Position numbers and translations under genes: made by a program
In this document: positions 1-19,219 of the stretch, piece by piece
Layout: the number at the start of each line of letters is the position of its first letter
Numbering within the stretch: the first letter of the stretch is position 1
Source: a virus
Direction: 5' to 3' (one strand)
Length of the DNA: 43,913 bases
IMG/VR virus record: IMGVR_UViG_3300031999_000054
Span: 1 to 43,913 of that record
Notes under the pieces: generated by a model
What the model saw: the letters and a program-made list of their open reading frames with translations, nothing else
What the model was told of the DNA's origin: nothing
Databases searched by the model: none

Positions 1-2
1 GC

Positions 3-413
3 AAGGGTGCCGCGGTCGCGCGGCGCGACCTCAGCCATACCAACCGCGGCAAGTTCGTGGCCGCGCGGGAGGTTGAGATCATCCCGATGTCCGCACAGGG
101 GCGCGAGGGCGACCCGGAGTACATCAGCATCAGCGCGCTCACCGGTGAGGCGTTGTTCGTGTCCGCGCACTGGGCACTGAAGCATAACCCGAAGGCGACC
201 GGCGTCGGTATCAGCCTCGGGTTTGACCTCTGGGAGAATGTGTACGAGTTCGCGCACAGGGGCGAGGGCTTCGACTACGAGCCGCGCATCGACCACTTTG
301 AGGTGGATCTGCCCGAGGAGTTGGTCGCGCAGCTGCGCGTCCTCATCAACCGCGACGGCATGATCGGACCCGGCGCCGCGGGCGGGTGCTACAACACTCC
401 GACCTTCATCTGA
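3..413 (+). CDS. hypothetical protein, 5' end cut by the window
   Basis: The reading frame is open from the first complete codon to TGA at 411-413, so the gene begins outside the window. The GTG at 57 is internal to this open stretch and has no ribosome binding site in front of it. The visible part is a soluble, mixed acidic protein of about 136 residues with no motif I recognise. Its stop codon lies two bases before a hammerhead ribozyme, as for the other genes of this operon. Function unknown. Confidence 0.6.
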   Translation, partial: KGAAVARRDLSHTNRGKFVAAREVEIIPMSAQGREGDPEYISISALTGEALFVSAHWALKHNPKATGVGISLGFDLWENVYEFAHRGEGFDYEPRIDHFEVDLPEELVAQLRVLINRDGMIGPGAAGGCYNTPTFI

Positions 414-415
414 AA

Positions 416-472
416 CCCACTGACGAGGCCGGCGGGAGCCGGCCGAAACACCCGGGCAGCCGGGTGTCTGGG
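416..472 (+). ncRNA. hammerhead ribozyme 1 (type I)
   Basis: Stem I is CCCA (416-419) with TGGG (469-472). The core is CTGACGA (420-426), then stem II GGCCGGC/GCCGGCC with a GGGA loop, GAAA (445-448), and an 8-bp stem III with loop GCAG. The predicted cut is after C468 of the GTC triplet. It sits two bases after the upstream stop codon and ahead of a 70-base leader. Confidence 0.9.
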
Positions 473-491
473 ATCCACTTCAGGTTCTCCA

Positions 492-511
492 TAGGCGCCC
501 CGCGGCGCCTA
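492..511 (+). promoter_or_regulatory. leader hairpin between two copies of TTCAGGTTCTC
   Basis: An 8-bp hairpin (TAGGCGCC, loop CCGC, GGCGCCTA) lies in the post-cleavage leader of the next gene. A TTCAGGTTCTC copy flanks it on each side, and the ribosome binding site ACAGGAG follows. The same layout recurs at 1500-1519 and 3016-3035 with compensated base changes. It may stabilise the mRNA or bind a factor; that role is inference. Confidence 0.55.
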
Positions 512-542
512 CCAGTTCAGGTTCTCTTCACAGGAGACGATC

Positions 543-785
543 ATGTCAGACGCTACGAAGACCAACGCAGAACGTGCAGACGAGTTGCAGGACATACTGT
601 GCCAGATGAAGGATTTGCTCTGGGAGGCACGCAAGCTCGTGCGCGGGACGCCAGAAGAATCCAGGGCCAATGCGTATTGGATCGCGCACATCAGCATGGC
701 GCTTGACAGTGAGCACGGATACCTCGGAGGCAGCATGTGCACCATGGAGAGCACGGCGAACGATCTCCGCGAGTCCGACGGCTGA
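543..785 (+). CDS. small hypothetical early protein (80 aa)
   Basis: ATG at 543 follows ACAGGAG with 7-base spacing. The protein is acidic and predicted mostly helical, with two cysteines and two histidines but no clear zinc-binding pattern. I recognise no family. It is one of the short single genes separated by ribozymes and probably encodes an early host-takeover factor, which is inferred only from position and size. TGA at 783-785 is one base before the next ribozyme. Confidence 0.75.
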   Translation: MSDATKTNAERADELQDILCQMKDLLWEARKLVRGTPEESRANAYWIAHISMALDSEHGYLGGSMCTMESTANDLRESDG

Positions 786-786
786 A

Positions 787-843
787 CCCACTGACGAGGC
801 CGGCGGGAGCCGGCCGAAACACCCGGCCACCCGGGTGTCTGGG
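787..843 (+). ncRNA. hammerhead ribozyme 2 (type I)
   Basis: CCCA/TGGG form stem I, followed by CTGACGA (791-797), GGGA-capped stem II and GAAA (816-819). Stem III is ACACCCGG/CCGGGTGT with loop CCAC. The predicted cut is after C839. Stem III keeps its pairing with ribozyme 1 while the loop differs. Confidence 0.9.
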
Positions 844-876
844 ATCCACTTCAGGTTCTCGACACAGGAGACGACG

Positions 877-1122
877 ATGCGAAACAACTTAATCGCTGTG
901 ACGCTGGGGCACAATTGGGGGGACGCGCTACGCGCCGCGGGCAACAAGATCGGCAATGTCGTGGGCATCGACCGCGATCAGCCGTGCGACGTCACCGTGT
1001 ACATCCGCACCTCCAAGACCGTACGCACGGTGGAGGATGAACTCCGCGCCGAATTGCAGTGCGACTACATCTGCGTGGAGAACGTGCCCCCGGAGTCCGA
1101 GTACCGCATGCTGTCACGCTGA
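877..1122 (+). CDS. small hypothetical protein (81 aa)
   Basis: ATG 877 was chosen because ACAGGAG lies 7 bases upstream; the longer frame from 670 would run through the ribozyme. The N-terminus shows alternating hydrophobic residues typical of a beta strand followed by a helix, and the protein could be a small alpha/beta fold. No family recognised. TGA (1120-1122) is one base before ribozyme 3. Confidence 0.75.
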   Translation: MRNNLIAVTLGHNWGDALRAAGNKIGNVVGIDRDQPCDVTVYIRTSKTVRTVEDELRAELQCDYICVENVPPESEYRMLSR

Positions 1123-1123
1123 A

Positions 1124-1180
1124 CCCACTGACGAGGCCGGCGGGAGCCGGCCGAAACCTGCCCACCCGGGCGGGTCTGGG
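1124..1180 (+). ncRNA. hammerhead ribozyme 3 (type I)
   Basis: The core CTGACGA (1128-1134) and GAAA (1153-1156) match the consensus. Stem III has a different sequence from its neighbours, ACCTGCCC/GGGCGGGT with one T-G wobble and loop ACCC, yet stays paired. The predicted cut is after C1176. The leader behind it is the short form lacking TTCAGG. Confidence 0.9.
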
Positions 1181-1200
1181 AACCAACACAGGAGACACCC

Positions 1201-1422
1201 ATGAAGCTCAGACCAGAACACGCGCAGGAGCTACGCGACGCCATAGCTCCAGTGCTAGCCGCCAATCCGGGCGCACGCGCAGAGTATGTAAAGCTCGGCA
1301 GGACGATGCGCAGGTACCGGTGGGACGTGTTACACGCGTCCGGGTACAACACCACGGCCATCTACAAGTATGCAAACGACGAACACATCGACACGGTGTT
1401 GCGCCGCGTCTGTGGTGACTGA
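1201..1422 (+). CDS. small hypothetical basic protein (73 aa)
   Basis: ATG 1201 follows ACAGGAG in the short leader. The protein is Arg/Lys-rich and predicted helical with a Tyr-rich middle, compatible with nucleic-acid binding, but no domain is recognised. TGA (1420-1422) abuts ribozyme 4. Confidence 0.75.
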   Translation: MKLRPEHAQELRDAIAPVLAANPGARAEYVKLGRTMRRYRWDVLHASGYNTTAIYKYANDEHIDTVLRRVCGD

Positions 1423-1423
1423 A

Positions 1424-1480
1424 CCCACTGACGAGGCCGGCGGGAGCCGGCCGAAACGCCCCACACGCGGGGCGTCTGGG
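1424..1480 (+). ncRNA. hammerhead ribozyme 4 (type I)
   Basis: CTGACGA (1428-1434), GGGA-capped stem II and GAAA are intact. Stem III is ACGCCCC/GGGGCGT with a six-base loop. The predicted cut is after C1476. It precedes the DUF932 gene and a hairpin-type leader. Confidence 0.9.
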
Positions 1481-1499
1481 ATCCACTTCAGGTTCTCCA

Positions 1500-1519
1500 T
1501 AGGCGCCACCCGGCGCCTA
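1500..1519 (+). promoter_or_regulatory. leader hairpin upstream of the DUF932 gene
   Basis: The hairpin is TAGGCGCC/GGCGCCTA with loop ACCC, instead of CCGC in the copy at 492. It is flanked by TTCAGGTTCTC and a diverged copy, TTCAAGTTCTT. Conservation of the stem with a changed loop supports a structured RNA element. Confidence 0.55.
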
Positions 1520-1550
1520 CCAATTCAAGTTCTTTCAACAGGAGACGACG

Positions 1551-2573
1551 ATGGCACATGAAATCAGCACAATCCAGAACGCCGAAGGTGACTTCGCCTA
1601 CGTGGGCACGCCCGGTTGGCACGGTCTCGGCACCGAGTTGCCCGAGGGGGCGGACATCGACACGTGGTGCAAGGCAGCTGGGATGGCCTACACGATCGAG
1701 CGCGCCGAAGTGCAGTACACGGTGGAGCCGGGTCAGATCCGCACGATGGACAACCGGGAGGTGTTCTTCCGGTCGGACACTGGGGATGGCCTCAGCGTCA
1801 TGAGCAAGGGATTCAAGATCGTTCAGCCCCGCCAGGTGCTGGAGTTCTTCAACGACCTCGTGGCCGGTTCCCGGTTCAGCCTGGAGACCGCCGCGGTGCT
1901 CAAGGACGGCGCCCGGTACTTCGCACTGGCCAAGTACAATGGCGGTGCGATCTTCGTGGACGGCAGGGACGAGGTGCGCCCCTATCTGCTCATGGCGACT
2001 TCGGTGGACGGGTACCTGGCCACGGTGGTGGACTTCACGACCGTACGCGTCGTGTGTCAGAACACCCTGGACATGTCGTTGGCCGAGAGCCGCAGCGCCT
2101 CCGACGAGGAGACCACGGGCGGACGGGTCAAGGTCTACCACAGCGCCAAGTTCGACGAGCAGCAGGTCAAGGCGAGGCTGGGCCTCGCGGACTTCGTGTT
2201 CGAGGAGGCCGCGGAGCGCTTCACCAAGCTCTCCCACGTCCCCATGGACGACGAGGCCGCGGTGCGGTACTTCCTGCGGGTGACCAATCCGGCGCTCAAC
2301 GCCGCGTCGTTGGTCAAGGCGAAGGAGGACCAGACTCCGGCGGAGCGCGCGGCCACGCTGGCCGTCAACAAGCTTCTGCTGGCCTACAAAGAGGCGCCGG
2401 GAGCGGAGCCGGGTACGGCGTGGGGTGCCCTGAATGCGGTGACGTGGTTCGAGGACCACGGGCGCAATTTCAGGTCCGACGCGACCCGCATCGACACCAG
2501 CCAGCTCGGGGCGGGTGCCGCCATGAAGAGGCGCGCGTTCAGCGTCGCGATGGAGCTGGCGCAGGCTGCGTAA
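1551..2573 (+). CDS. DUF932 family phage/plasmid-like protein
   Basis: This 340-aa protein matches the DUF932 (TIGR03299 phage/plasmid-like) family that I know from many phages and plasmids. Visible hallmarks are the N-terminal GTPGWHGLG stretch, the FKIVQPRQVLEFF segment and VVCQNTLDMSL near the middle. The family's biochemical role is not established; an early replication or anti-host function is often guessed. ATG 1551 has a good ribosome binding site. It is by far the largest gene of the ribozyme operon and carries one of only three hairpin leaders, which may mean extra control of its expression. Confidence 0.85.
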   Translation: MAHEISTIQNAEGDFAYVGTPGWHGLGTELPEGADIDTWCKAAGMAYTIERAEVQYTVEPGQIRTMDNREVFFRSDTGDGLSVMSKGFKIVQPRQVLEFFNDLVAGSRFSLETAAVLKDGARYFALAKYNGGAIFVDGRDEVRPYLLMATSVDGYLATVVDFTTVRVVCQNTLDMSLAESRSASDEETTGGRVKVYHSAKFDEQQVKARLGLADFVFEEAAERFTKLSHVPMDDEAAVRYFLRVTNPALNAASLVKAKEDQTPAERAATLAVNKLLLAYKEAPGAEPGTAWGALNAVTWFEDHGRNFRSDATRIDTSQLGAGAAMKRRAFSVAMELAQAA

Positions 2574-2576
2574 CAA

Positions 2577-2631
2577 CCCACTGACGAGGCCGGCGGGAGC
2601 CGGCCGAAACGCCCCGGAGGGGGCGTCTGGG
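2577..2631 (+). ncRNA. hammerhead ribozyme 5 (type I)
   Basis: CTGACGA (2581-2587) and GAAA (2606-2609) are intact. Stem III is ACGCCCC/GGGGCGT with loop GGAG. The predicted cut is after C2627. The stop codon TAA is three bases upstream, and the short leader follows. Confidence 0.9.
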
Positions 2632-2654
2632 AACCAACACAGGAGACCCTACAC

Positions 2655-2939
2655 ATGCCAACAGACACCACGATCATTGCCGACCTTGCCAAGAGGTATC
2701 TCTCAGAGGCGGACGGCGACCCGGTTCGTGCCCGCCGATACATGATCAACGCCCGGTCTGAGTACCCGGTAGGATCACACCTCCGCCACCTATACACTGC
2801 GGCGATTGCTGAACTCGCCCTGTTGGTAGAGGCCTCTGGGGGTGACGCCGCGTACTTCGACCGGCACGACCGTGCCCGAGAAGGCGCAGTGCGCGACCAC
2901 TACGCGGGGGGCGACAGGGGCGATGACGACACGGACTGA
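2655..2939 (+). CDS. small hypothetical protein (94 aa)
   Basis: ATG 2655 is preceded by ACAGGAG with slightly longer spacing. The protein is helical, with a TIIADLAKRYL-like N-terminal helix and an acidic Gly/Asp-rich tail. No family recognised. TGA (2937-2939) is one base from ribozyme 6. Confidence 0.7.
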   Translation: MPTDTTIIADLAKRYLSEADGDPVRARRYMINARSEYPVGSHLRHLYTAAIAELALLVEASGGDAAYFDRHDRAREGAVRDHYAGGDRGDDDTD

Positions 2940-2940
2940 A

Positions 2941-2996
2941 CCCACTGACGAGGCCGGCGGGAGCCGGCCGAAACCCGAGCACCGCTCGGGTCTGGG
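2941..2996 (+). ncRNA. hammerhead ribozyme 6 (type I)
   Basis: CTGACGA (2945-2951) and GAAA (2970-2973) are intact. Stem III is ACCCGAGC/GCTCGGGT with a three-base loop, another compensated version. The predicted cut is after C2992. Confidence 0.9.
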
Positions 2997-3015
2997 ATCC
3001 AATTCAGGTTCTCGA

Positions 3016-3035
3016 CGGGCGCCCCGCGGCGCCCG
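3016..3035 (+). promoter_or_regulatory. leader hairpin upstream of the 231-aa gene
   Basis: The stem is CGGGCGCC/GGCGCCCG with loop CCGC. Relative to 492-511 the two outer A-T pairs have become G-C pairs, so pairing is preserved through compensatory change. A TTCAGGTTCTC copy lies on each side. Confidence 0.6.
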
Positions 3036-3066
3036 GTGGTTCAGGTTCTCTTCACAGGAGATGGCA

Positions 3067-3762
3067 ATGGACAAATTCACGATCGACAAGGAGAACATCG
3101 AGGCGCAGATGTCCTACGGCTCCGAGCACATCAGCAGCGATGTGAAGGTCGAAGGTTTCTGGGGCAATCCGATCGACATCCGCATCAAGAGGGGCTGGAA
3201 CTGGGACCGCAAGACGGGCGACGAGTTGCCCGCCGGGTGGGAGTTCGAGGTGACGCATAGCTCCGGCGGCACGGGGCGCGGTACGGATTCACTGGTCACG
3301 GAGCGTAACTTCGCGGCTGCGTTGCTCGCGGTTTGCGACTACGTGGACACGTTGAAGGCGTGCGTCCCGGACATGGAAGCTGCGTACCAGTTCAGGATGG
3401 CTGAGTACGAAAGGGAACGGAAGGCTGAGCAGGCGGCCAAGCAGGCCAAGATCGACGCAGACCCGGAGATCGGGCTGGCTGCTGCACGCGCCTACATCGA
3501 GGCGTTGGTGGCCAACACCCGCGTGTCGAACGGGCAGCGGTTCCACGTGTTGCGGGCCAAGGTCCGCGGTGCCGACCACACCGCGGATTTCGTGGCGTGC
3601 AAGCTGCACACCGATCGGGTCGTGCTGCGCATGGGCGGCAGCGCGATCGGCGCCAAGCAGGCGTGGGAGAAGCTCGCAGGCTACGCGCAGGCCGGTCTGG
3701 TGGCGGACGTCGTGTTGGACGACGACGCGATCCGAGAGCTGCACCGCTCCTACAACCTCTGA
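3067..3762 (+). CDS. hypothetical protein with central coiled-coil (231 aa)
   Basis: ATG 3067 is preferred over ATG 3061 because AGGAG ends right before 3061 and gives normal spacing only to 3067. The N-terminal third is predicted beta-rich with several Trp residues. A charged helix of about residues 115-140, rich in Glu, Lys and Ala, follows, and then a mixed C-terminal part. No family recognised. It is the second largest gene of the ribozyme operon. Confidence 0.75.
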   Translation: MDKFTIDKENIEAQMSYGSEHISSDVKVEGFWGNPIDIRIKRGWNWDRKTGDELPAGWEFEVTHSSGGTGRGTDSLVTERNFAAALLAVCDYVDTLKACVPDMEAAYQFRMAEYERERKAEQAAKQAKIDADPEIGLAAARAYIEALVANTRVSNGQRFHVLRAKVRGADHTADFVACKLHTDRVVLRMGGSAIGAKQAWEKLAGYAQAGLVADVVLDDDAIRELHRSYNL

Positions 3763-3763
3763 A

Positions 3764-3818
3764 CCCACTGACGAGGCCGGCGGGAGCCGGCCGAAACGCC
3801 CCGGAGGGGGCGTCTGGG
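3764..3818 (+). ncRNA. hammerhead ribozyme 7 (type I)
   Basis: Sequence and stems match ribozyme 5, with stem III ACGCCCC/GGGGCGT and loop GGAG. The core CTGACGA is at 3768-3774 and the predicted cut is after C3814. The near-identity to ribozyme 5 suggests recent duplication or conversion. Confidence 0.9.
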
Positions 3819-3838
3819 AACCAACACAGGAGACTCAA

Positions 3839-4099
3839 ATGACCTACCGTTCGGCAGCAGACATCAAGCGCATGCTCAAGGCCAAGGAGAACGCAGCCAA
3901 GCGCTGGGGACCGACACCCACGCCCGACGAGCGTGCAGTGGTGAAGGCGCAGGCATACGCGGAGCTCAATCGACAGCCGAGTGTGGCGGACTGGCCCGCG
4001 TACGACCTGTATCAGTTCCTCATGGGTGAGCGTCTGACCCGGGAGGAAGCACGAGCGTTGGTCGCAGACATGGGACACGACGTGAGCGGCCTCGACTGA
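3839..4099 (+). CDS. small hypothetical protein (86 aa)
   Basis: ATG 3839 follows the short leader with AGGAG. The protein is helical, Lys/Arg-rich at the start and acidic at the end. Two segments, about residues 5-20 and 60-80, look like amphipathic helices. No family recognised. TGA (4097-4099) is one base before ribozyme 8. Confidence 0.75.
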   Translation: MTYRSAADIKRMLKAKENAAKRWGPTPTPDERAVVKAQAYAELNRQPSVADWPAYDLYQFLMGERLTREEARALVADMGHDVSGLD

Positions 4100-4100
4100 A

Positions 4101-4157
4101 CCCACTGACGAGGCCGGCGGGAGCCGGCCGAAACACCCGGGTGGCCGGGTGTCTGGG
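4101..4157 (+). ncRNA. hammerhead ribozyme 8 (type I)
   Basis: CTGACGA (4105-4111) and GAAA are intact. Stem III is ACACCCGG/CCGGGTGT with loop GTGG. The predicted cut is after C4153. Confidence 0.9.
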
Positions 4158-4191
4158 ATCCAATTCAGGTTCTCGACATAGGAGCATAAGT

Positions 4192-4392
4192 ATGAAACTG
4201 GCACGGGACAAGGCGGAGAGGCCCAGCGCAGACTGGGCTGTGGGGTACTACCGATGGGTGATGACTGCGCCCTGCGGTTGCTGCGGGAATCAGACCACAG
4301 GCAGGATCAGCGGTACTGAAGAGGACGTGCGCCGTTGCGTGGACGAAAAGCGCTGGCTGTGTAAGATCTGCGAGCGCGGCAGCAAGGCATAG
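4192..4392 (+). CDS. small Cys-rich, possible zinc-binding protein (66 aa)
   Basis: ATG 4192 follows ATAGGAG with 8-base spacing. A CGCC motif near residue 31 and a CKIC motif near residue 58 could form one four-cysteine zinc site, giving a zinc-ribbon-like fold. Such small zinc proteins are common early phage genes, often binding nucleic acid or RNA polymerase; that role is inference. The G of the TAG stop is also the first base of ribozyme 9. Confidence 0.7.
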   Translation: MKLARDKAERPSADWAVGYYRWVMTAPCGCCGNQTTGRISGTEEDVRRCVDEKRWLCKICERGSKA

Positions 4393-4448
4393 GACGAAAC
4401 CCGGGCCGCGCGCCCGGGTCGCAGCGTGATGCGCTGCCTGACGAGTCC
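4392..4448 (+). ncRNA. hammerhead ribozyme 9 (type II, circularly permuted)
   Basis: Here the open stem is stem II: GGAC (4392-4395) pairs with GTCC (4445-4448). GAAA (4396-4399) leads into stem III ACCCGGGC/GCCCGGGT, and GTC ends at C4420. Stem I is closed (GCAGCG/CGCTGC, loop TGATG), and CTGACGA is at 4438-4444. The upstream stop codon TAG shares its G with stem II. Confidence 0.9.
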
Positions 4449-4468
4449 CCAACACAGGAGAGATGAAC

Positions 4469-4693
4469 ATGACCGAAAGCACCAACGAGATTGCCCGGCG
4501 CGGCGCGCCCCCCACCCACGGTCTGGCCGTGCTGGACGTGCCCCTCTACCCGCGCAGCGCGCAGGTCCTCTTGGACATCTTGGAGGAGGCGCCGTACTCC
4601 CGCATGGGCTTGCCGAGGTACGTGCTCACGGACCTCGACAACCTGCGCAACTACTTGCGCTCCCACCTCCAGCGCGTGGCGCTGGGACTCTAA
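4469..4693 (+). CDS. small hypothetical protein (74 aa)
   Basis: ATG 4469 is chosen over ATG 4463 because it has the normal 8-base spacing from ACAGGAG. The protein has a Pro-rich beginning and a Leu/Arg-rich helical second half. No family recognised. TAA (4691-4693) abuts ribozyme 10 directly. Confidence 0.75.
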   Translation: MTESTNEIARRGAPPTHGLAVLDVPLYPRSAQVLLDILEEAPYSRMGLPRYVLTDLDNLRNYLRSHLQRVALGL

Positions 4694-4750
4694 CCCACTG
4701 ACGAGGCCGGCGGGAGCCGGCCGAAACGCCTCTCACCGGAGGCGTCTGGG
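4694..4750 (+). ncRNA. hammerhead ribozyme 10 (type I)
   Basis: CTGACGA (4698-4704) and GAAA are intact. Stem III is ACGCCTC/GAGGCGT. The predicted cut is after C4746. The CCCA arm of stem I starts on the base after the stop codon. Confidence 0.9.
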
Positions 4751-4783
4751 ATCCAATTCAGGTTCTCTACACAGGAGACAATC

Positions 4784-5017
4784 ATGACCCTCTGCGTTGA
4801 CCGCAATCAGGTGATCGAGTACGAGGCCCACAAGTTCGTCGTGGCGGCCAGTGACCTCGGCCTTGCCCCGGGCGAGTTCCCGAAGCAGATTGAGACCAAC
4901 CTCGGCAACGGCCAGCCGCTCATCCGCAAGAGCCGCGTCGAGATCAACGGCGATCTCATCGAGGTCGTGTACTGGCAGGCCTTCGGGTGCGTGGAGCTTC
5001 ACGTCCACAACGACTAA
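4784..5017 (+). CDS. small hypothetical protein (77 aa)
   Basis: ATG 4784 follows ACAGGAG. The sequence alternates predicted beta strands and a helix and ends in a Val/His-rich strand. No family recognised. TAA (5015-5017) abuts ribozyme 11. Confidence 0.75.
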   Translation: MTLCVDRNQVIEYEAHKFVVAASDLGLAPGEFPKQIETNLGNGQPLIRKSRVEINGDLIEVVYWQAFGCVELHVHND

Positions 5018-5073
5018 CCCACTGACGAGGCCGGCGGGAGCCGGCCGAAACCCGAGCACCGCTCGGGTCTGGG
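5018..5073 (+). ncRNA. hammerhead ribozyme 11 (type I)
   Basis: CTGACGA (5022-5028) is intact and stem III ACCCGAGC/GCTCGGGT equals that of ribozyme 6. The predicted cut is after C5069. Confidence 0.9.
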
Positions 5074-5106
5074 ATCCAATTCAGGTTCTCGACACAGGAG
5101 ACCACG

Positions 5107-5343
5107 ATGAGCAAATTGACCGATGAAGAACGGCTGAAGGTCTACGCGGTACTCAGCAGCGCGGGACCAGACATAGACGCCTGGACCCCCAAGTTTGCCC
5201 GCCTCGCCAACAAGGCGAAGAAGGCTGGCGTGATCGGGGACGAGGCCAAGACGCTGGACTTCCTGGTGAAAGAAGGGATGCTTGGCCCCAAGAGCGACAC
5301 GCTTCGCGCACCCGGGGACAAGTATTACCCGCCGCGTGGGTGA
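5107..5343 (+). CDS. small hypothetical protein (78 aa)
   Basis: ATG 5107 follows ACAGGAG. The protein is charged and helical, with a Lys-rich middle. No family recognised. TGA (5341-5343) is one base before the variant ribozyme 12. Confidence 0.75.
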   Translation: MSKLTDEERLKVYAVLSSAGPDIDAWTPKFARLANKAKKAGVIGDEAKTLDFLVKEGMLGPKSDTLRAPGDKYYPPRG

Positions 5344-5344
5344 A

Positions 5345-5401
5345 CCCACTGACGAGGCCGGCGGGAGCCAGCCGAAACACCCGGGCGCCCGGGTGTATGG
5401 G
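5345..5401 (+). ncRNA. hammerhead ribozyme 12 (type I, variant cleavage site)
   Basis: CTGACGA (5349-5355) and GAAA are intact, but two positions differ from all other copies. Stem II carries one C-A mismatch (GCCAGCC instead of GCCGGCC), and the cleavage triplet is GTA (A5397) instead of GTC. A at position 17 is a permitted hammerhead nucleotide, so the unit should still cut, perhaps more slowly. Confidence 0.8.
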
Positions 5402-5421
5402 AACCAACACAGGAGACGATG

Positions 5422-5667
5422 ATGAAGACTGTCTATTTGCTTTTCCGCAACGAGACCCGCGCCACCGTAGAGGTGGAGGATGTGCTGGGCTATCGCTACG
5501 CAGTCAATCTGGTACGCGACAGCGCATACGTGCCGTTTCCGGAGACCCCCTACATGGGCGCCGACGGTATCATGTCCAAGACCGACCACGGGTGGGTGTT
5601 CGCCCCGGTACACCCCGCAGCAGTCGAAGCCATGGGCAAGGTGGCTGCCGCGCTGGCCAACAGCTAG
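5422..5667 (+). CDS. small hypothetical protein (81 aa)
   Basis: Two ATG codons stand in tandem at 5419 and 5422; 5422 has the 6-base spacing used by the sister genes. The protein is predicted beta-rich in its first half and helical at the C-terminus. No family recognised. The TAG stop shares its G with ribozyme 13. Confidence 0.75.
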   Translation: MKTVYLLFRNETRATVEVEDVLGYRYAVNLVRDSAYVPFPETPYMGADGIMSKTDHGWVFAPVHPAAVEAMGKVAAALANS

Positions 5668-5723
5668 GACGAAACCCGGGCCACGCGCCCGGGTCGCAGC
5701 GTGATGCGCTGCCTGACGAGTCC
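5667..5723 (+). ncRNA. hammerhead ribozyme 13 (type II)
   Basis: GGAC (5667-5670) pairs with GTCC (5720-5723). GAAA, stem III ACCCGGGC/GCCCGGGT, closed stem I GCAGCG/CGCTGC and CTGACGA (5713-5719) are all present. The predicted cut is after C5695. Confidence 0.9.
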
Positions 5724-5744
5724 TTTCAAACACAGGAGACGACA

Positions 5745-5981
5745 ATGACCACCAAGACCGTACCGACGCCAGACACAACCGGAGACGTGCGTTATCCGAG
5801 CATCAAGGTCAAGCTCACGGGCAGCGATGGCAATGCTTTCGCGATCATGGGCAACGTGACCCGGGCATTGCGGAGCGCGGGGGTGCCCGCGGAGGAGCTG
5901 TCGCTGTACCGATCCGAGAGCATGAGCGGGGACTACAACAAGCTGCTCTCCACCGCCATGCGCTGGGTGAACGTGCGCTGA
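5745..5981 (+). CDS. small hypothetical protein (78 aa)
   Basis: ATG 5745 follows ACAGGAG; the longer frame from 5340 crosses two ribozymes and is not credible. Mixed alpha/beta composition, no recognised family. TGA (5979-5981) is one base before ribozyme 14. Confidence 0.75.
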   Translation: MTTKTVPTPDTTGDVRYPSIKVKLTGSDGNAFAIMGNVTRALRSAGVPAEELSLYRSESMSGDYNKLLSTAMRWVNVR

Positions 5982-5982
5982 A

Positions 5983-6039
5983 CCCACTGACGAGGCCGGC
6001 GGGAGCCGGCCGAAACGCCTCCCACCGGAGGCGTCTGGG
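5983..6039 (+). ncRNA. hammerhead ribozyme 14 (type I)
   Basis: CTGACGA (5987-5993) and GAAA are intact. Stem III is ACGCCTCC/GGAGGCGT with loop CACC. The predicted cut is after C6035. Confidence 0.9.
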
Positions 6040-6072
6040 ATCCAATTCAGGTTCTCGACACAGGAGACAGCT

Positions 6073-6333
6073 ATGGGATTCAAGCATGCAAACTTCCAGT
6101 GCCCGGACAGCGGGGTGGGCGTAACCGTCACCAATCAAGGTGGGTGGCGCGCATACGTGGACGACGATCGCGCAGACGTAGAGGAATACGCCGAGTCAGT
6201 CACAGCAGCCGAAGCGTGGTGCAAACGGGCCAACGGTGTACTGCGGTACCTGCACGCCAGAGAAGACGTGGAAAACGTCCTGGTAGATCGGTTTGGGTGT
6301 GAGGCAGACGACCTCGATTCACTCACGTGGTAG
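6073..6333 (+). CDS. small hypothetical protein (86 aa)
   Basis: ATG 6073 follows ACAGGAG. The protein is acidic, with a predicted beta hairpin at residues 10-30 followed by helices. No family recognised. TAG (6331-6333) abuts ribozyme 15. Confidence 0.75.
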   Translation: MGFKHANFQCPDSGVGVTVTNQGGWRAYVDDDRADVEEYAESVTAAEAWCKRANGVLRYLHAREDVENVLVDRFGCEADDLDSLTW

Positions 6334-6390
6334 CCCACTGACGAGGCCGGCGGGAGCCGGCCGAAACGCCTCCCACCGGAGGCGTCTGGG
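6334..6390 (+). ncRNA. hammerhead ribozyme 15 (type I)
   Basis: CTGACGA (6338-6344) is intact and stem III equals that of ribozyme 14. The predicted cut is after C6386. Confidence 0.9.
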
Positions 6391-6423
6391 ATCCAATTCA
6401 GGTTCTCGACACAGGAGACGACA

Positions 6424-6633
6424 ATGGCTTATCAGTTTACAGTGCCCGTCAATCTAGCACTCACCAGAGACGAGGCGCATGCCTTAAAACGCGCGCTCAT
6501 CTACGAGACCAAGCGCTTGGAAGCCGTCTACGACACCACCAGCGAATCGTCGCAACCAAGCGTATGGGTGGAACAGGAACACATCTTCGACGTCTCAACG
6601 CGACTGGCCACGCTGATGACCGGGATGGAGTGA
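6424..6633 (+). CDS. small hypothetical protein (69 aa)
   Basis: ATG 6424 follows ACAGGAG. The protein is predicted as two helices around a polar Ser/Gln-rich linker. No family recognised. Its TGA overlaps the ATG of the next small gene (TGATG). This is the only boundary in this operon without a ribozyme, so the two are presumably translated together from one processed mRNA. Confidence 0.75.
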   Translation: MAYQFTVPVNLALTRDEAHALKRALIYETKRLEAVYDTTSESSQPSVWVEQEHIFDVSTRLATLMTGME

Positions 6634-6740
6634 TGTCGGCGTATCTCACATACGTGTACGACACATTTCTCAACACGCTCTGGACGTTCATGTTGGCGTA
6701 CGTGTTGTACAAGGTTATGGCCGGCAAGAGGCGTAGGTAG
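6633..6740 (+). CDS. 35-aa single-pass membrane protein
   Basis: The ATG overlaps the previous stop codon. The peptide has a hydrophobic, aromatic core (FLNTLWTFMLAYVLY) followed by a Lys/Arg-rich end, so it should span the membrane once with its C-terminus in the cytoplasm. The TAG stop shares its G with ribozyme 16, placing this gene in the same pattern as its neighbours and supporting its reality. Function unknown. Confidence 0.65.
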   Translation: MSAYLTYVYDTFLNTLWTFMLAYVLYKVMAGKRRR

Positions 6741-6796
6741 GACGAAACCCGGGCCGCGCACCCGGGTCGCGCCGTGACGCGGCGCCTGACGAGTCC
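6740..6796 (+). ncRNA. hammerhead ribozyme 16 (type II)
   Basis: GGAC/GTCC form stem II, GAAA is at 6744-6747 and CTGACGA at 6786-6792. Closed stem I is GCGCCG/CGGCGC, replacing GCAGCG/CGCTGC of units 9 and 13 with full compensation. The predicted cut is after C6768. Confidence 0.9.
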
Positions 6797-6814
6797 CAAA
6801 CACAGGAGACGACG

Positions 6815-7063
6815 ATGGGTTATTTCAACAATTTGGCTATATGCCGCATGATGGTCAAGGAGCAGCGCCAGGATCTGACGCCGGAGCAGAAGCTACGGCT
6901 GAAAGGGTCGTATGTGTACGGGTATCAACGCGGTGCGGGGGACTGGGAATTCCAGAACCCACAGGATGGCTTCTACTGGCACGGACACGCGGACAATGCC
7001 GCAGACGCCCGGTACCATGGTACAGAGGCGTGGCTGCGGAAGTTCTACCCGGACCAGGAATGA
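6815..7063 (+). CDS. small hypothetical protein (82 aa)
   Basis: ATG 6815 follows ACAGGAG. The middle is aromatic and Gly-rich (YVYGYQRGAGDWEF), and the C-terminal half holds several Trp, Tyr and His residues. No family recognised. TGA (7061-7063) abuts ribozyme 17. Confidence 0.75.
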   Translation: MGYFNNLAICRMMVKEQRQDLTPEQKLRLKGSYVYGYQRGAGDWEFQNPQDGFYWHGHADNAADARYHGTEAWLRKFYPDQE

Positions 7064-7120
7064 GGACGAAACCCGGGCCGCGCGCCCGGGTCGCGGCGTG
7101 CTGCGCCGCCTGACGAGTCC
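7064..7120 (+). ncRNA. hammerhead ribozyme 17 (type II)
   Basis: GGAC (7064-7067) pairs with GTCC (7117-7120). GAAA, stem III and CTGACGA (7110-7116) are intact. Closed stem I is GCGGCG/CGCCGC, a third compensated version. The predicted cut is after C7092. Confidence 0.9.
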
Positions 7121-7138
7121 CAAACACAGGAGACCAAG

Positions 7139-7339
7139 ATGAAGACCGAAAAAGAGATCCAGGCTCAGATCAACGAGGTGCGTAACCTCGTGCACGACAA
7201 GAGCAAGTCCGACATCGAGCAGCGCGTGGCCTTCGCGGTCGCAGAGGCGCTGCGCTGGACCATCCGGACCAAAGACGTCGTAACCCCGGTGAACGTCGCG
7301 GCCATTCAGGGCAAACTGGCGGTCACGTTCAACACTTAG
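7139..7339 (+). CDS. small hypothetical protein (66 aa)
   Basis: ATG 7139 follows ACAGGAG. The protein is charged and helical in its first two thirds and ends in a short strand. No family recognised. The TAG stop is followed by the first bases of a type II unit and then by a complete type I unit. Confidence 0.75.
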   Translation: MKTEKEIQAQINEVRNLVHDKSKSDIEQRVAFAVAEALRWTIRTKDVVTPVNVAAIQGKLAVTFNT

Positions 7340-7346
7340 GACGCAA

Positions 7347-7403
7347 CCCACTGACGAGGCCGGCGGGAGCCGGCCGAAACGCCTCCCACCGGAGGCGTCT
7401 GGG
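7347..7403 (+). ncRNA. hammerhead ribozyme 18 (type I, hybrid upstream junction)
   Basis: CTGACGA (7351-7357), GAAA (7376-7379) and stem III as in unit 14 are intact. The predicted cut is after C7399. The seven bases between the stop codon and CCCA begin like a type II unit (TAGGACG), so a recombination seam between the two types is visible. It is the last ribozyme of the array. Confidence 0.9.
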
Positions 7404-7436
7404 ATCCAATTCAGGTTCTCGACACAGGAGATAAGT

Positions 7437-7640
7437 ATGTGCAACAAGATGGTTCCGCAGACTGTTCCAACGCGGTACAGCGCCAAAGTCGTGATGACCC
7501 GTTGCGGGAGCACGAGCATCTACGGCGACATGGTGTTGTGCGACGAGTGCGCAAAGACTCGCCCCAACCCACCCGCCTGGACCTACGAGGATGCTGGGGA
7601 GGATGACTTCGACCCCAACTGGAAGTTCCAGCCTGAGTGA
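7437..7640 (+). CDS. small hypothetical, possible zinc-binding protein (67 aa)
   Basis: ATG 7437 follows ACAGGAG. A cysteine near the start, CGS near residue 22 and a CDEC motif near residue 38 could bind a metal. The C-terminal third is acidic and Trp/Pro-rich. No family recognised. It is the last gene of the ribozyme operon; no ribozyme follows it. Confidence 0.7.
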   Translation: MCNKMVPQTVPTRYSAKVVMTRCGSTSIYGDMVLCDECAKTRPNPPAWTYEDAGEDDFDPNWKFQPE

Positions 7641-7661
7641 CACGGAGTCCAATGCATAAAT

Positions 7662-7696
7662 AGCGCTAGCGCTGTCTCCGCGTTGGGGGTTATAAT
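7662..7696 (+). promoter_or_regulatory. candidate promoter with overlapping 12-bp palindrome
   Basis: TATAAT at 7691-7696 is a perfect sigma-70 -10 box. No good -35 box is seen at normal spacing. Instead the perfect palindrome AGCGCTAGCGCT (7662-7673) occupies that position, which suggests an operator or an activator-dependent promoter. The site would drive the gene at 7730 and the replication module. It lies in the only noncoding gap of this part, just downstream of the ribozyme operon. Confidence 0.5.
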
Positions 7697-7729
7697 TGGT
7701 GGGCTTCAAACAACCAACGAGGAACCTAC

Positions 7730-8125
7730 ATGCTGGAAGCTAGCATTGACAGATTGGCCGCAGCCCTAGAAAAGCTGGCGGACGCGGTAGCGACGCGTTC
7801 AGGAACGGCGACCGCGCCCGCCCCGGCCCAATCACCTGCCAAACCCGCAGCGGCCAAACCCGCAGCGGCCAAACCTGCCGCCCCCGCAGCTGCCCCGGCG
7901 ACGACCGTGGGGCAAGCGGCGGGAGCACCGCTTTCTGGCCCCACCGTGGAGCAGTTGCGCGACCAGTTGCGCGCACTGTTGGACAGCAAGGGCAAGGACG
8001 CGGTGGTGGCAGCGCTTGCCGCCGTTGGAGCCGCAAAGCTGTCGGACGTCAAGCAGGCGGACTACACCCGGTTGGCAGAAGCCATCACGGGGCAGGCTGC
8101 CGCGCAGGCGGATCCGTTCGCGTGA
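7730..8125 (+). CDS. Ala/Pro-rich linker protein (131 aa), function unknown
   Basis: ATG 7730 follows AGGAACCTAC. An N-terminal helix of about 20 residues is joined by a low-complexity Ala/Pro/Lys linker (about residues 25-60, repeated AAAKP units) to a helical C-terminal domain. The last residues, ADPFA, resemble the acidic tip of ssDNA-binding proteins, but this is only a resemblance. It is the first gene after the candidate promoter and is followed by a strong terminator, so it may be expressed alone at high level. Confidence 0.75.
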   Translation: MLEASIDRLAAALEKLADAVATRSGTATAPAPAQSPAKPAAAKPAAAKPAAPAAAPATTVGQAAGAPLSGPTVEQLRDQLRALLDSKGKDAVVAALAAVGAAKLSDVKQADYTRLAEAITGQAAAQADPFA

Positions 8126-8132
8126 GCCCATA

Positions 8133-8176
8133 CCCCCGGACCGGCCATAGCGCCGGCCCGGGGGTTTTGTCGTTTT
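8133..8176 (+). terminator. rho-independent terminator
   Basis: A 12-bp GC-rich stem with one A-C mismatch (8133-8145 with 8152-8164) and a six-base loop is followed by TTTTGTCGTTTT. It should end the transcript of the 131-aa gene, at least in part, before the replication genes. Confidence 0.85.
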
Positions 8177-8225
8177 CGGTGTCGAAAAAGGCACACTGAC
8201 GCACACCCTCCTCACAGGAGCGAAC

Positions 8226-8531
8226 ATGAAACTGAGTTTGTTCCCGCTACTGTCCGCCTATTGCGGCGGGCAGAGCGATGAATCTTGCGGTATCGGATTA
8301 CGCGCGTGGGACGCATTGGACTACGACCTCCCTGAAAACGAGGAAGGTGCGACCACTCCGGAAGAGGCCGCAGCTGCGGAAGCCCAACTGTCTGCCCGGG
8401 GAGCCGGCACACGTCTGGACGTATGGGACGCCGGATACCGGGCTATGGACGTCTGCCAGGAGTCGCAGAGTGTTGACTACATTGACCCGGTGTACCCACT
8501 GGCGTGGGCAATCGCGGGGCGGTTCTTTTAG
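8226..8531 (+). CDS. hypothetical protein (101 aa)
   Basis: ATG 8226 follows ACAGGAG. The N-terminus is hydrophobic with a CGGQSDESCG segment. The middle is Glu/Ala-rich, and the end is aromatic. No family recognised. It is the first gene after the terminator. Confidence 0.7.
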   Translation: MKLSLFPLLSAYCGGQSDESCGIGLRAWDALDYDLPENEEGATTPEEAAAAEAQLSARGAGTRLDVWDAGYRAMDVCQESQSVDYIDPVYPLAWAIAGRFF

Positions 8532-8535
8532 CAGT

Positions 8536-8554
8536 CCAATTCAGGTTCTCGACA
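8536..8554 (+). repeat. orphan copy of the ribozyme leader sequence
   Basis: Nineteen bases identical to the leader that follows type I ribozymes (CCAATTCAGGTTCTCGACA) lie between two genes here. There is no ribozyme before them and no AGGAG after them; ATG follows within three bases. Confidence 0.7.
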
Positions 8555-8556
8555 CC

Positions 8557-8871
8557 ATGCGCACCAAACACCCAACGTACACCTCTCAGGTTCTGGAAGT
8601 CATGTCCGCCGCGGACGACTTCATGACCTCCTATCAGATTGAAAACTTGCTGCGCATCGGGCACAAGCGCGTATCCGCAGCGCTACACCATTTGTTCCAA
8701 TACCACGTTGTGGACGCTATGGCGTGCAACGGTAAGCTGTTGTGGTACGCTACCCCAGATGAAGACCAGCGACAGCACACCCACCGTACCACCGTGGAGG
8801 GAACCACGCGCAACCGCAAACCCGCGCCGCACCCGCGCCGCAAGGCCTCTCAACTCCCCACAAGGAAATAA
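8557..8871 (+). CDS. small winged-helix-like protein (104 aa)
   Basis: ATG 8557 is chosen because the longer frame from 8278 overlaps the previous gene entirely. Residues about 20-65 look like a winged helix: a helix-turn-helix with SYQIENLLRI and KRVSAALHHL, followed by a short beta wing. The C-terminal 40 residues are basic and disordered (Arg/Lys/Pro-rich). DNA binding is plausible. The start lacks a usual ribosome binding site and is preceded by the orphan leader repeat. Confidence 0.6.
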   Translation: MRTKHPTYTSQVLEVMSAADDFMTSYQIENLLRIGHKRVSAALHHLFQYHVVDAMACNGKLLWYATPDEDQRQHTHRTTVEGTTRNRKPAPHPRRKASQLPTRK

Positions 8872-8874
8872 CGG

Positions 8875-10023
8875 ATGCCCGGCCAGCACGCACTACTTTC
8901 CCCCAGTGGCTCAGACCGCTGGATGACCTGCCCCGGCTCAATACAGGCCGAGGCGGGGTTCCCCAATACAACATCCGTCTACGCCCAAGAGGGTACGGAC
9001 GCGCATGAGCTTCTAGAGATGTCTCTCCGTCTGGGCGTAGAGCCGGCGGCGCTTGCCACGGACACAACGCCGGAAGACATGGTGGAGGCCGTCGGGCACG
9101 CGCTGGATTACCTGCGCGCCCATATCGCAGAATGCGAGACCCTTGGGCTGCCCTACGAGTTTCACCCTGAAGAGAAACTTGAGATAGACCCCGACCACGG
9201 CATATGGGGCACCTCGGACCTCATCATCGTCATGCCCTCAGTGCTGGTCGTGACGGACTACAAGCACGGACAGGGCGTCGTGGTTGAGCCTGAGAACAAC
9301 AGCCAGATGATGCTGTACGCCGCGGGCGCGCGGCGCAAGCACGGGCGCCGCCCGACTTATAAGCTGGCCGTGGTGCAACCGCGGGCGCGGCACGCGCGAG
9401 GCCCAATCCGCGAGTGGTCATTGACGGACGACGAGCTCACCGCGTTCATGGAGCGCGTACACCAAGCCGCCATCGCCACGCTGCACGGGGACGCCCCGCG
9501 GGTGGCGGGGTCCCATTGCATGTGGTGCCGCGCCGCGGGCGCGTGCCCCACTCTGCGTGAGTTTGCGTTGACCCGGGCAATCGCGGAGTTTGCCCCGGTC
9601 ATTACCCCGAAAGCACCCCCGGAAGGCGGCGAGTTGCTCGCAGAGGCGTTACAGGCGACTGCAACGGTAGAGCTATGGGTCAAGGCAGTGCGCGCGGCGG
9701 CGCTGCGCATACTGTCTTCCGGGGGCGAGGTTCCCGGGTACAAACTGGTGTCTGGCCGGCGCTCGCGCGCATGGGTCAACGAGGCCCAAGTTATGGACCG
9801 GTTGCTCAAGGAAGGCTTCCCGCTCGATGAAATTGCCCCGCGCTCGCTGGTGAGTCCGGCGGGGGCAGAACGTGTGGTCAAGACGATGAACAAGATCGGG
9901 GTGCTCGTAGACGCTACAGCATTCACAGACCTGATCACGTGGAAGGAATCAGCGCCCACTGTGGCGCCTGAGAACGACCCCCGCCCAGCAGTTCAGCAGG
10001 GGTCGGAGTTTGATGACAACTAG
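8875..10023 (+). CDS. DUF2800 family, PD-(D/E)XK nuclease-like protein
   Basis: This 382-aa protein fits the phage DUF2800 family, related to RecB/Cas4-type nucleases. It starts with the typical LLSPSGSDRWMTCPGS segment. Visible active-site candidates are D115 (GTSDL) and D128/K130 (TDYKHG). One N-terminal cysteine and a later CMWC plus C cluster are arranged like the Fe-S cysteines of Cas4-like enzymes. It probably acts in phage recombination or replication. It lies directly before a DUF2815 gene, a pairing common in phages with this polymerase type. ATG 8875 follows AAGGAAA. Confidence 0.85.
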   Translation: MPGQHALLSPSGSDRWMTCPGSIQAEAGFPNTTSVYAQEGTDAHELLEMSLRLGVEPAALATDTTPEDMVEAVGHALDYLRAHIAECETLGLPYEFHPEEKLEIDPDHGIWGTSDLIIVMPSVLVVTDYKHGQGVVVEPENNSQMMLYAAGARRKHGRRPTYKLAVVQPRARHARGPIREWSLTDDELTAFMERVHQAAIATLHGDAPRVAGSHCMWCRAAGACPTLREFALTRAIAEFAPVITPKAPPEGGELLAEALQATATVELWVKAVRAAALRILSSGGEVPGYKLVSGRRSRAWVNEAQVMDRLLKEGFPLDEIAPRSLVSPAGAERVVKTMNKIGVLVDATAFTDLITWKESAPTVAPENDPRPAVQQGSEFDDN

Positions 10024-15230: not shown

Positions 15231-15533
15231 ATGGCATGGAAACCGATGACATCCTACCTTGACCGCGTAAAGGTAGCGAGTGAGATACGAGATCTGGAAT
15301 CCGAGAACCGCTTACTGCGGGCACAGCTGGCTAGCGAGATCAGCAAGCGCAAGGAATCCGAGCAGTCCGCAACAGCTGGCGCGGCGCTTCTGGGGGAGTC
15401 GAAACTTTACGCCGCGCGGTACCGTTGGCTGCGTCAGGCACCAGCATCGTGGGCGTGGGCTGTCGGAGCGTGGTCCCCGGAATGGCTAGACAAAGAAGTG
15501 GACACGCAGATAGCGCTACAGGAGAAGGCATGA
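15231..15533 (+). CDS. coiled-coil hypothetical protein (100 aa)
   Basis: ATG 15231 lies one base after the previous stop, behind GGAG. Residues about 10-45 form a heptad-like helix rich in Leu, Glu and Arg. A YRWLRQAP segment follows, similar to the RYRWLR motif of many uncharacterised phage proteins. The gene overlaps the next by four bases (ATGA). Function unknown. Confidence 0.7.
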   Translation: MAWKPMTSYLDRVKVASEIRDLESENRLLRAQLASEISKRKESEQSATAGAALLGESKLYAARYRWLRQAPASWAWAVGAWSPEWLDKEVDTQIALQEKA

Positions 15534-17175: not shown

Positions 17176-17176
17176 C

Positions 17177-18625: not shown

Positions 18626-18628
18626 CCC

Positions 18629-19219
18629 ATGCCCGAGATGCAAGACGACCAGCCGGCGTGGATGATGCGCGGTGAAGATGAGAACTCCAACATCACTGCG
18701 CTCATGCTGCTCCTGCTTCGGGAAGAGCAACCAAAGTACGTGGTAGAGTACTTTGGCGGGACAGGGCGCATGACCACGGCCATACACGAGTACTGGCCGG
18801 ACGCGCGCATCATCTCGTGGGACAAAGACCCCAGGTGCTGCGACATGATACAGGCCGCGGTACCCGCGGCGGACGTCTACATTGGGGACTCCATCGCGGA
18901 CCTCGTCCCGCCCCCCGGGGCCGGGGTCATAATGGACTTCAACAAGCTGACCATCAAGCGCTTCCGTGATGACTATTCAGGGTATCGCACGTGTATAGAG
19001 CGCGTGGTTGCAACCATGCCTGCGTTCGTTACAATCACGGACGGCGCCAAGGTCCGGCTGCAACTGCACTACAAGACCTATGGCCTGAAAAGCCGCAGCA
19101 AGGAGGAGTACCGGGAGGCGTTCTGCGAAGAGTTGCGCGCCCGCTACGGTACACGCGTGGTACGGTCCGAGGAGGCCAAACGTGCGTTCATGTTCATAAT
19201 GCGGGAGCCATGGCTATGA
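18629..19219 (+). CDS. Rossmann-fold, SAM methyltransferase-like protein (196 aa)
   Basis: A nucleotide-binding Rossmann start is visible (VVEYFGGTGRMTTAI near residue 32), then WDKDP as the acidic residue ending strand 2, and GDSIADLV. The usual catalytic NPPY is replaced by DFNKL, so methyl transfer to a base is uncertain. It lies between the radical SAM enzyme and the DNA kinase in an overlapped operon, so a role in base modification is likely but unproven. Its TGA overlaps the next ATG. Confidence 0.65.
   Translation: MPEMQDDQPAWMMRGEDENSNITALMLLLLREEQPKYVVEYFGGTGRMTTAIHEYWPDARIISWDKDPRCCDMIQAAVPAADVYIGDSIADLVPPPGAGVIMDFNKLTIKRFRDDYSGYRTCIERVVATMPAFVTITDGAKVRLQLHYKTYGLKSRSKEEYREAFCEELRARYGTRVVRSEEAKRAFMFIMREPWL

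What the first reader, a model, noticed from the sequence alone, without database searches (positions are those of the whole stretch)
416..7403. Array of 18 hammerhead ribozymes at nearly every gene boundary of an early phage operon
Each unit has the full hammerhead core (CTGACGA, GAAA) and a GTC or GTA cleavage triplet, with three stems. Stem III exists in at least six different sequences that all stay paired. Of the boundaries between about 20 genes, only the overlapping pair at 6633 lacks one. Single or few hammerheads are known in phages; I know of no dense array that would cut an operon into mostly single-gene mRNAs. The products would have 5'-OH and 2',3'-cyclic phosphate ends, changing their decay and letting each gene be tuned separately.
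Basis: partly seen in the sequence, partly recalled or inferred. Interest (0 to 1): 0.97.

Follow-up and report, generated by a model that had tools for sequence, protein, structure and literature searches.

The report
Hammerhead ribozymes between nearly all genes
A phage gene cluster carries a self-cutting RNA (a hammerhead ribozyme) at 18 of the 19 joints between its 20 small genes, so its long RNA copy should cut itself into single-gene messages; clusters of this kind were already reported in prophages, but this is the densest one found here and it suggests how the question of their purpose could be tested.

Summary
There are 18 hammerhead ribozymes on the + strand between 416 and 7403: 14 type I and 4 type II. 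They fill 18 of 19 boundaries between 20 genes; the exception is the overlap at 6633. A structural descriptor finds exactly these 18 and none in 20 shuffles. Covariance models trained only on other phages find exactly 14 and 4 (E 1e-16 to 2e-8). Stem III changes by paired substitutions. Rfam's own models stay below threshold here and on 12 other phage loci, so they are uninformative.

The claim that no such array is known is wrong. Perreault et al. 2011 described clustered hammerheads flanking single genes in prophages, proposed processing into single-gene mRNAs and showed cleavage. I found 20 other viral records with 5 to 12 units, and arrays in cultured Streptomyces phages. With 18 units in two permutations, the window is the largest here.

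In other contigs types I and II usually begin at the upstream stop codon and end just before the next Shine-Dalgarno. The best reading is intercistronic processing that gives each message a hairpin-capped 3' end and a short 5'-OH leader. Cleavage is strongly predicted; the benefit is inferred.

The parts
416..472 (+). type I hammerhead, cleavage after C468 (GTC)
   Evidence: (E 8.6e-11)
787..843 (+). type I hammerhead, cleavage after C839 (GTC)
   Evidence: (9.5e-11)
1124..1180 (+). type I hammerhead, cleavage after C1176 (GTC)
   Evidence: (3.9e-9)
1424..1480 (+). type I hammerhead, cleavage after C1476 (GTC)
   Evidence: 2.1e-10
2577..2631 (+). type I hammerhead, cleavage after C2627 (GTC)
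   Evidence: (1.4e-10)
2941..2996 (+). type I hammerhead, cleavage after C2992 (GTC)
   Evidence: 4.1e-10
3764..3818 (+). type I hammerhead, cleavage after C3814 (GTC)
   Evidence: 1.4e-10
4101..4157 (+). type I hammerhead, cleavage after C4153 (GTC)
   Evidence: 7.8e-11
4392..4448 (+). type II hammerhead, cleavage after C4420 (GTC); shares its first base with the TAG stop of the upstream gene
   Evidence: (3.2e-16)
4694..4750 (+). type I hammerhead, cleavage after C4746 (GTC)
   Evidence: 2.6e-10
5018..5073 (+). type I hammerhead, cleavage after C5069 (GTC)
   Evidence: (4.1e-10)
5345..5401 (+). type I hammerhead, cleavage after A5397 (GTA); one mismatch in stem II
   Evidence: (1.7e-8)
5666..5724 (+). 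type II hammerhead, cleavage after C5695 (GTC)
   Evidence: (1.2e-16)
5983..6039 (+). type I hammerhead, cleavage after C6035 (GTC)
   Evidence: 2.9e-10
6334..6390 (+). type I hammerhead, cleavage after C6386 (GTC)
   Evidence: (2.9e-10)
6740..6796 (+). type II hammerhead, cleavage after C6768 (GTC)
   Evidence: (2.4e-16)
7064..7120 (+). type II hammerhead, cleavage after C7092 (GTC)
   Evidence: (1.9e-15)
7347..7403 (+). type I hammerhead, cleavage after C7399 (GTC)
   Evidence: (2.9e-10)
7337..7352 (+). probable exchange scar: the start of a type II unit (TAGGACG) runs into a type I unit at the shared AACCC
   Evidence: read; same start as the type II units in A2; inference
57..413 (+). gene 1 of the punctuated operon (start uncertain, near the window edge)
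   Evidence: ORF list
543..7640 (+). genes 2-20: 543-785, 877-1122, 1201-1422, 1551-2573 (DUF932), 2655-2939, 3067-3762, 3839-4099, 4192-4392, 4469-4693, 4784-5017, 5107-5343, 5422-5667, 5745-5981, 6073-6333, 6424-6633, 6633-6740, 6815-7063, 7139-7339, 7437-7640; almost all without a known family
6631..6635 (+). the only gene boundary in the array without a ribozyme: TGATG stop/start overlap
473..542 (+). long leader between ribozyme and start: two copies of TTCAGGTTCTC flanking a GGCGCC hairpin, then CACAGGAG Shine-Dalgarno (also 1481-1550 and 2997-3066)
   Evidence: three discrete leader lengths: 17-23, 33-34 and 70 nt

Best explanation
The operon from about position 57 to 7640 is probably transcribed as one long RNA in which 18 cis-acting hammerhead ribozymes fold as they emerge and cut after the GUC (or GUA) triplet, about 30-60 nt after each stop codon and about 20-75 nt before the next start. 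This would turn a 20-gene transcript into 18 single-gene messages and one two-gene message (genes 16-17). In both permutations used here stem III is a closed hairpin that ends up at the very 3' end of the upstream message, carrying a 2',3'-cyclic phosphate. The downstream message begins with a 5'-OH, followed by a short leader (type I) or a 5'-terminal hairpin (type II) and then its own Shine-Dalgarno. The likely benefit is that each gene gets its own half-life and protected ends, independent of its neighbours and without promoters or terminators between genes. Shown: the ribozyme structures, their positions, covariation and recurrence in other phages. Known from relatives: hammerheads of this kind cleave in vitro and in E. 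coli. Inferred: one transcript, efficient cleavage here, and the effect on stability and gene dosage.
For: Structure: 18 of 18 units by descriptor against 0 in 20 shuffles; models trained only on other phages hit exactly the 4 type II units and exactly the 14 type I units; compensatory changes in stem III (98.5% of cells paired, covariation score 0.272 against 0.073 shuffled, 0/500) and in type II stem I; the same structures covary strongly in other phages. Two circular permutations of one fold sit at the same kind of site. Position: in the window the units begin within a few nt of the stop codon in 16 of 18 cases and a Shine-Dalgarno plus start follows at discrete distances. In other viral contigs types I and II begin within -6..+3 nt of a stop in 52% and 70% (control 5-6%) and end 10-35 nt before a Shine-Dalgarno-equipped start in 56% and 76% (control 10-11%). 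All 71 multi-unit loci have all units on one strand. With third-party gene calls, 13 of 13 hammerheads in phages Gibson and Wentworth lie outside genes and end 13-17 nt before an annotated start. No sigma-70-like promoter or + strand terminator-like site was found in 1-9000. Activity precedent: three tandem arrangements cleaved in vitro, one in E. coli, and a halovirus transcript 5' end maps within three nt of a hammerhead cleavage site (PMC3088659).
Against: No cleavage was measured for these sequences. The four type II units lack the loop I/3'-tail pseudoknot described by Perreault et al. (only 3 bp possible), and no clear tertiary contact was found for the type I units, so speed at cellular magnesium is unknown; 14 of 18 consensus hammerheads tested by Perreault et al. 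were active. Rfam models do not reach their cut-offs. In a compact genome, docking at stop and start could simply reflect small intergenic gaps. RNase E can also cut 5'-OH RNA by direct entry (PMC2948425), so 5'-OH ends need not stabilise. Close relatives of this phage were not available, so conservation of this very array could not be tested.
Confidence: 0.66

Rival explanations
1. The units are spreading or recombining sequence cassettes (selfish repeats or gene-swap boundaries); cleavage is incidental and gives the phage no benefit.
For: 13 of 14 type I units share an identical 33-nt block; a scar at 7337-7352 looks like a type I unit swapped into a type II site; almost all flanked genes are small orphans.
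Against: Neutral repeats would not keep all core bases while changing stem III in compensated pairs, nor sit so precisely between stop codon and Shine-Dalgarno in unrelated phages, nor appear in two permutations.
Confidence: 0.13
2. Cleavage is regulated rather than constitutive. Because each unit starts at the stop codon, a terminating ribosome covers its 5' strand and blocks folding, so translated upstream genes stay linked to their neighbour and idle ones are cut off; or a small molecule tunes cleavage.
For: Stop codons overlap or abut the ribozyme in most units; type III units, which carry the ribozyme on the downstream message, are not docked to stops (1 of 21).
Against: No evidence of a ligand-binding domain (short stable loops); docking may only reflect genome compactness; the type III sample is small.
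Confidence: 0.12
3. Hairpins for termination, RNase processing or 3'-end protection, without ribozyme action.
For: Stable G+C-rich hairpins follow each stop codon.
Against: No U tracts (no + strand terminator-like site); the invariant CTGACGA, GAAA and GTC bases and the type II permutation have no reason to exist in simple hairpins; trained hammerhead models fit with E down to 1e-16.
Confidence: 0.03
4. The 5'-OH and cyclic-phosphate ends are joined by RtcB-type ligase to make circular single-gene RNAs.
For: Every internal segment is bounded by two ribozymes and would carry the right ends (inference).
Against: No RtcB in the window or in 20 other array-bearing records; Perreault et al. looked for spliced or circular products and saw none. 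A host ligase is not excluded.
Confidence: 0.04

Closest known systems
Clustered hammerhead ribozymes of prophages (Perreault et al. 2011, PMC3088659, Figure 3)
   Same: Type I, II and III hammerheads flanking single genes or short gene blocks in phage DNA; proposed processing into single-gene or operon-length mRNAs; cleavage shown for Clostridium scindens, Azorhizobium caulinodans and Agrobacterium tumefaciens arrangements.
   Different: The arrangements tested there lie on fragments of about 2 kb (the A. tumefaciens one is triple). Here 18 units occupy 18 of 19 boundaries over 7 kb and two permutations are mixed in one operon.
Type II hammerhead arrays in cultured Streptomyces phages Gibson and Wentworth (MK305891, MH019216; found here)
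   Same: 7 and 6 units between small genes, all on one strand, ending 13-17 nt before start codons.
   Different: Only type II, fewer boundaries occupied, unrelated genes; no prior mention was found in the library searched.
IMG/VR contig holding L057 (G013)
   Same: 12 type II hammerheads in 5.4 kb on one strand, a similar density.
   Different: Single permutation, fewer units; unrelated sequence.
HHphage of haloviruses HF1/HF2
   Same: Hammerhead 13 nt upstream of a gene start in the early region; mapped transcript 5' end within three nt of the cleavage site (as cited in PMC3088659).
   Different: A single variant-core ribozyme, not an array.

Membership tests
Hammerhead ribozyme, type I | Core C3U4G5A6N7G8A9, G12A13A14, A15.1-U16.1 and H17 in the right order | tested here: met
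   14 of 14 units
Hammerhead ribozyme, type I | Three helices with stem I open and stems II and III closed, supported by covariation | tested here: met
   Folds; stem III covaries; stems I and II do not vary in the window but covary in other phages
Hammerhead ribozyme, type II | Permuted order with stem II open, same core | tested here: met
   4 of 4 units
Hammerhead ribozyme, type II | Loop I / 3'-tail pseudoknot of 4 or more bp (majority of known type II, not all) | tested here: not met
   Only 3 bp possible in all four; in the sampled phage type II units 4-bp matches are no commoner than in re-paired controls. Loops GTGATGC and GTGACGC are among the commonest loops in those units. The feature is common, not obligatory.
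Hammerhead ribozyme (Rfam RF00163, RF02276, RF00008) | Score above the curated gathering threshold | tested here: inconclusive
   Below threshold, but the Rfam scan also reaches no threshold in 12 other phage loci rich in hammerheads
Hammerhead ribozyme | Self-cleavage after H17 | not testable with these tools
   Needs an in vitro assay
Clustered phage hammerheads (Perreault 2011) | Several same-strand hammerheads flanking single genes in phage DNA | tested here: met
   18 units, phage genes downstream (DNA polymerase, helicase, exonuclease, tape measure)
Intrinsic terminator | Hairpin followed by a U run | tested here: not met
   No + strand terminator-like site in 1-9000

The most novel reading that the evidence does not exclude
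A phage uses self-cleaving ribozymes as general operon punctuation in place of promoters and terminators: every non-overlapping gene joint carries a ribozyme docked to the stop codon, so one transcript becomes a set of monocistronic messages with hairpin-capped 3' ends and 5'-OH leaders, with cutting possibly coupled to termination of translation.
Probability: 0.4. Interest if true: 0.88.

Novelty: new variant of a known kind. Interest (0 to 1): 0.74.

Why it matters
What phage hammerheads are for is still called unknown in the papers read here (2011 to 2023). An operon with a ribozyme at 18 of 19 joints is hard to explain as incidental and points to processing into single-gene messages. The placement rule (start at the stop codon, end just before the Shine-Dalgarno) is measurable, and the matching arrays in cultured Streptomyces phages make the question testable in the laboratory. 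Standard Rfam scans missed these ribozymes here, so they may be missed in routine phage annotation as well.

Tried and rejected
Chance: rejected (0 in 20 shuffles). Rfam as arbiter: uninformative, since it reaches threshold at none of the hammerheads in 12 other phage loci. Close DNA relatives of the window: none by megablast in phages, by exact core in viral contigs or through the DUF932 protein; tools warn that near records may be left out. A longer stem I made of GAACC and GGTTC in the flanks: rejected, because units with one partner often lack the other (read). Loop/tail pseudoknots: not supported for the window. RtcB-based circularisation: no RtcB in 21 records. BLAST of a type I array against cultured phages gave only a short protein-coding match to Caulobacter phage Sansa without hammerheads. 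Sampling prokaryote genomes of one phylum with the type II model was not possible with the handle available. A strict count suggested type I far outnumbers type III (127:17); a relaxed count gives 96:28, so I make little of it.
Full report
Observation. The region was read directly and scanned with a descriptor written for this purpose: conserved core CTGANGA, GAAA and NUH, stems I-III, all three circular permutations, both strands. It returns exactly 18 units in 43,913 bases, all on the + strand between 416 and 7403: 14 type I and 4 type II. Twenty dinucleotide shuffles give none. Twelve folded units have the hammerhead as their minimum-free-energy structure, in most cases far below shuffles.

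Independent models. To avoid circularity I built two covariance models only from hammerheads of other viral contigs: R1 (type II, 45 sequences) and R2 (type I, 22 sequences). In the window R1 gives four matches at E 1e-16 to 2e-15, the four type II units, with everything else above 0.02. R2 gives exactly the 14 type I units at 8e-11 to 2e-8. Rfam's own families do not reach their cut-offs, but the same scan reaches threshold at none of the hammerheads in 12 loci of other phages, so its silence is not evidence against.

Covariation. In the window stems I and II of the type I units are essentially invariant, while stem III comes in five helix families: 5 of 8 pairs have double changes, 98.5% of cells are paired, and the covariation score is 0.272 against 0.073 in shuffles (0/500). 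The four type II units vary in stem I in the same compensated way (only four sequences). In other phages all stems covary strongly. So the fold is maintained, although 13 of 14 type I units share an identical 33-nt block, which points to recent copying within the array.

Gene context. Twenty ORFs, 19 boundaries, 18 ribozymes; the only boundary without one is the TGATG overlap at 6631-6635. Sixteen of 18 units begin within a few nt of the stop codon (one further unit is 7 nt away, and one was assigned by the script to the core UGA although an in-frame TAA lies just upstream). Starts with a Shine-Dalgarno follow at three discrete distances from the end of the ribozyme: 17-23, 33-34 and 70 nt. 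No sigma-70-like promoter and no + strand terminator-like site was found in 1-9000. Apart from a DUF932 protein the genes have no convincing family. The phage has a family A DNA polymerase, helicase, exonuclease and tape measure protein. The record is a viral contig, possibly a fragment, and the array begins near its left end, so the count is a lower bound.

Not alone. On whole records the models find 12, 10, 9, 8 and 8 type II units in the richest records and up to 7 type I units; 20 records other than the window have five or more, though a few pairs are near-duplicates. In the loci fetched, all 71 with two or more units have them on one strand and 65 have a single type; the window and L101 are the clear cases of types I and II mixed in one array. 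A BLAST of one such array reached cultured Streptomyces phages: Gibson has 7 and Wentworth 6 type II units, none overlapping an annotated gene, all ending 13-17 nt before an annotated start codon, and in seven cases 4-12 nt after the previous annotated stop.

Placement rule. Over about 350 units from other contigs, types I and II begin within -6..+3 nt of a stop codon in 52% and 70% of cases against 5-6% for shifted controls, whereas type III does so in 1 of 21. All three types are followed 10-35 nt downstream by a Shine-Dalgarno-equipped start in 56-78% against 10-15%. Types I and II are also the permutations in which the closed stem III hairpin stays at the 3' end of the upstream product. 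I read this as selection for a capped 3' end next to the stop codon, but genome compactness could produce the same docking, and the loci were chosen by patterns, so proportions of types are not population estimates.

Mechanism. Cleavage itself is the safest inference: cores are perfect, and similar phage hammerheads cleave in vitro and in E. coli (PMC3088659). In the same paper 14 of 18 consensus hammerheads tested were active, and a halovirus transcript end maps within three nt of a hammerhead cleavage site. The products would be 18 single-gene messages and one two-gene message (genes 16-17, joined by the overlap). Which benefit follows is not known. Independent half-lives with protected ends fits best; 5'-OH ends lack the monophosphate that stimulates RNase E, but RNase E can also enter directly (PMC2948425). 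Ribosome-coupled cleavage and cassette spread remain alive; RNA circles are unlikely to be phage-driven since RtcB is absent from 21 array records.

Known or new. The concept of clustered phage hammerheads that process transcripts was published in 2011, and later work notes that self-cleaving ribozymes are enriched near Mu-like phage genes and near each other, with the reason unknown (PMC10085705). What is new here is the extreme: near-complete occupation of an operon, two permutations in one array, a probable exchange scar between them (7337-7352), a quantified placement rule, and tractable cultured phages. I found no paper describing such an operon-wide array in the library available, but subscription papers are mostly missing from it.

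Noticed in passing
15425-21819: Cluster for hypermodified thymine in phage DNA: amino acid:DNA transferase (ADDT), PLP enzyme, photolyase-like protein, 5-hmdU DNA kinase and its helical partner, thymidylate-synthase-like protein.
   Followed up: partly
479, 516, 850, 1487, 3003, 3040, 4164, 4757, 5080, 6046, 6397, 7410, 8540, 10614, 12567: Leader element TTCAGGTTCTC occurs 15 times on the + strand and never on the other, also just upstream of genes without a ribozyme (8540, 10614); possibly a translation or binding element.
   Followed up: partly
481-541, 1489-1549, 3005-3065: Three leaders carry a GGCGCC-type hairpin between copies of the TTCAGGTTCTC element; function unknown.
   Followed up: no
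L274 and L275 (Streptomyces phages Gibson and Wentworth): Unannotated type II hammerhead arrays in cultured phages; gaps of 600-750 nt before some units may hide unannotated genes.
   Followed up: partly
Rfam scan of window and 12 other loci: Current Rfam hammerhead models miss phage hammerheads at their gathering thresholds.
   Followed up: yes
L101: A second array mixing type I and type II hammerheads (2 + 2) on one strand.
   Followed up: no
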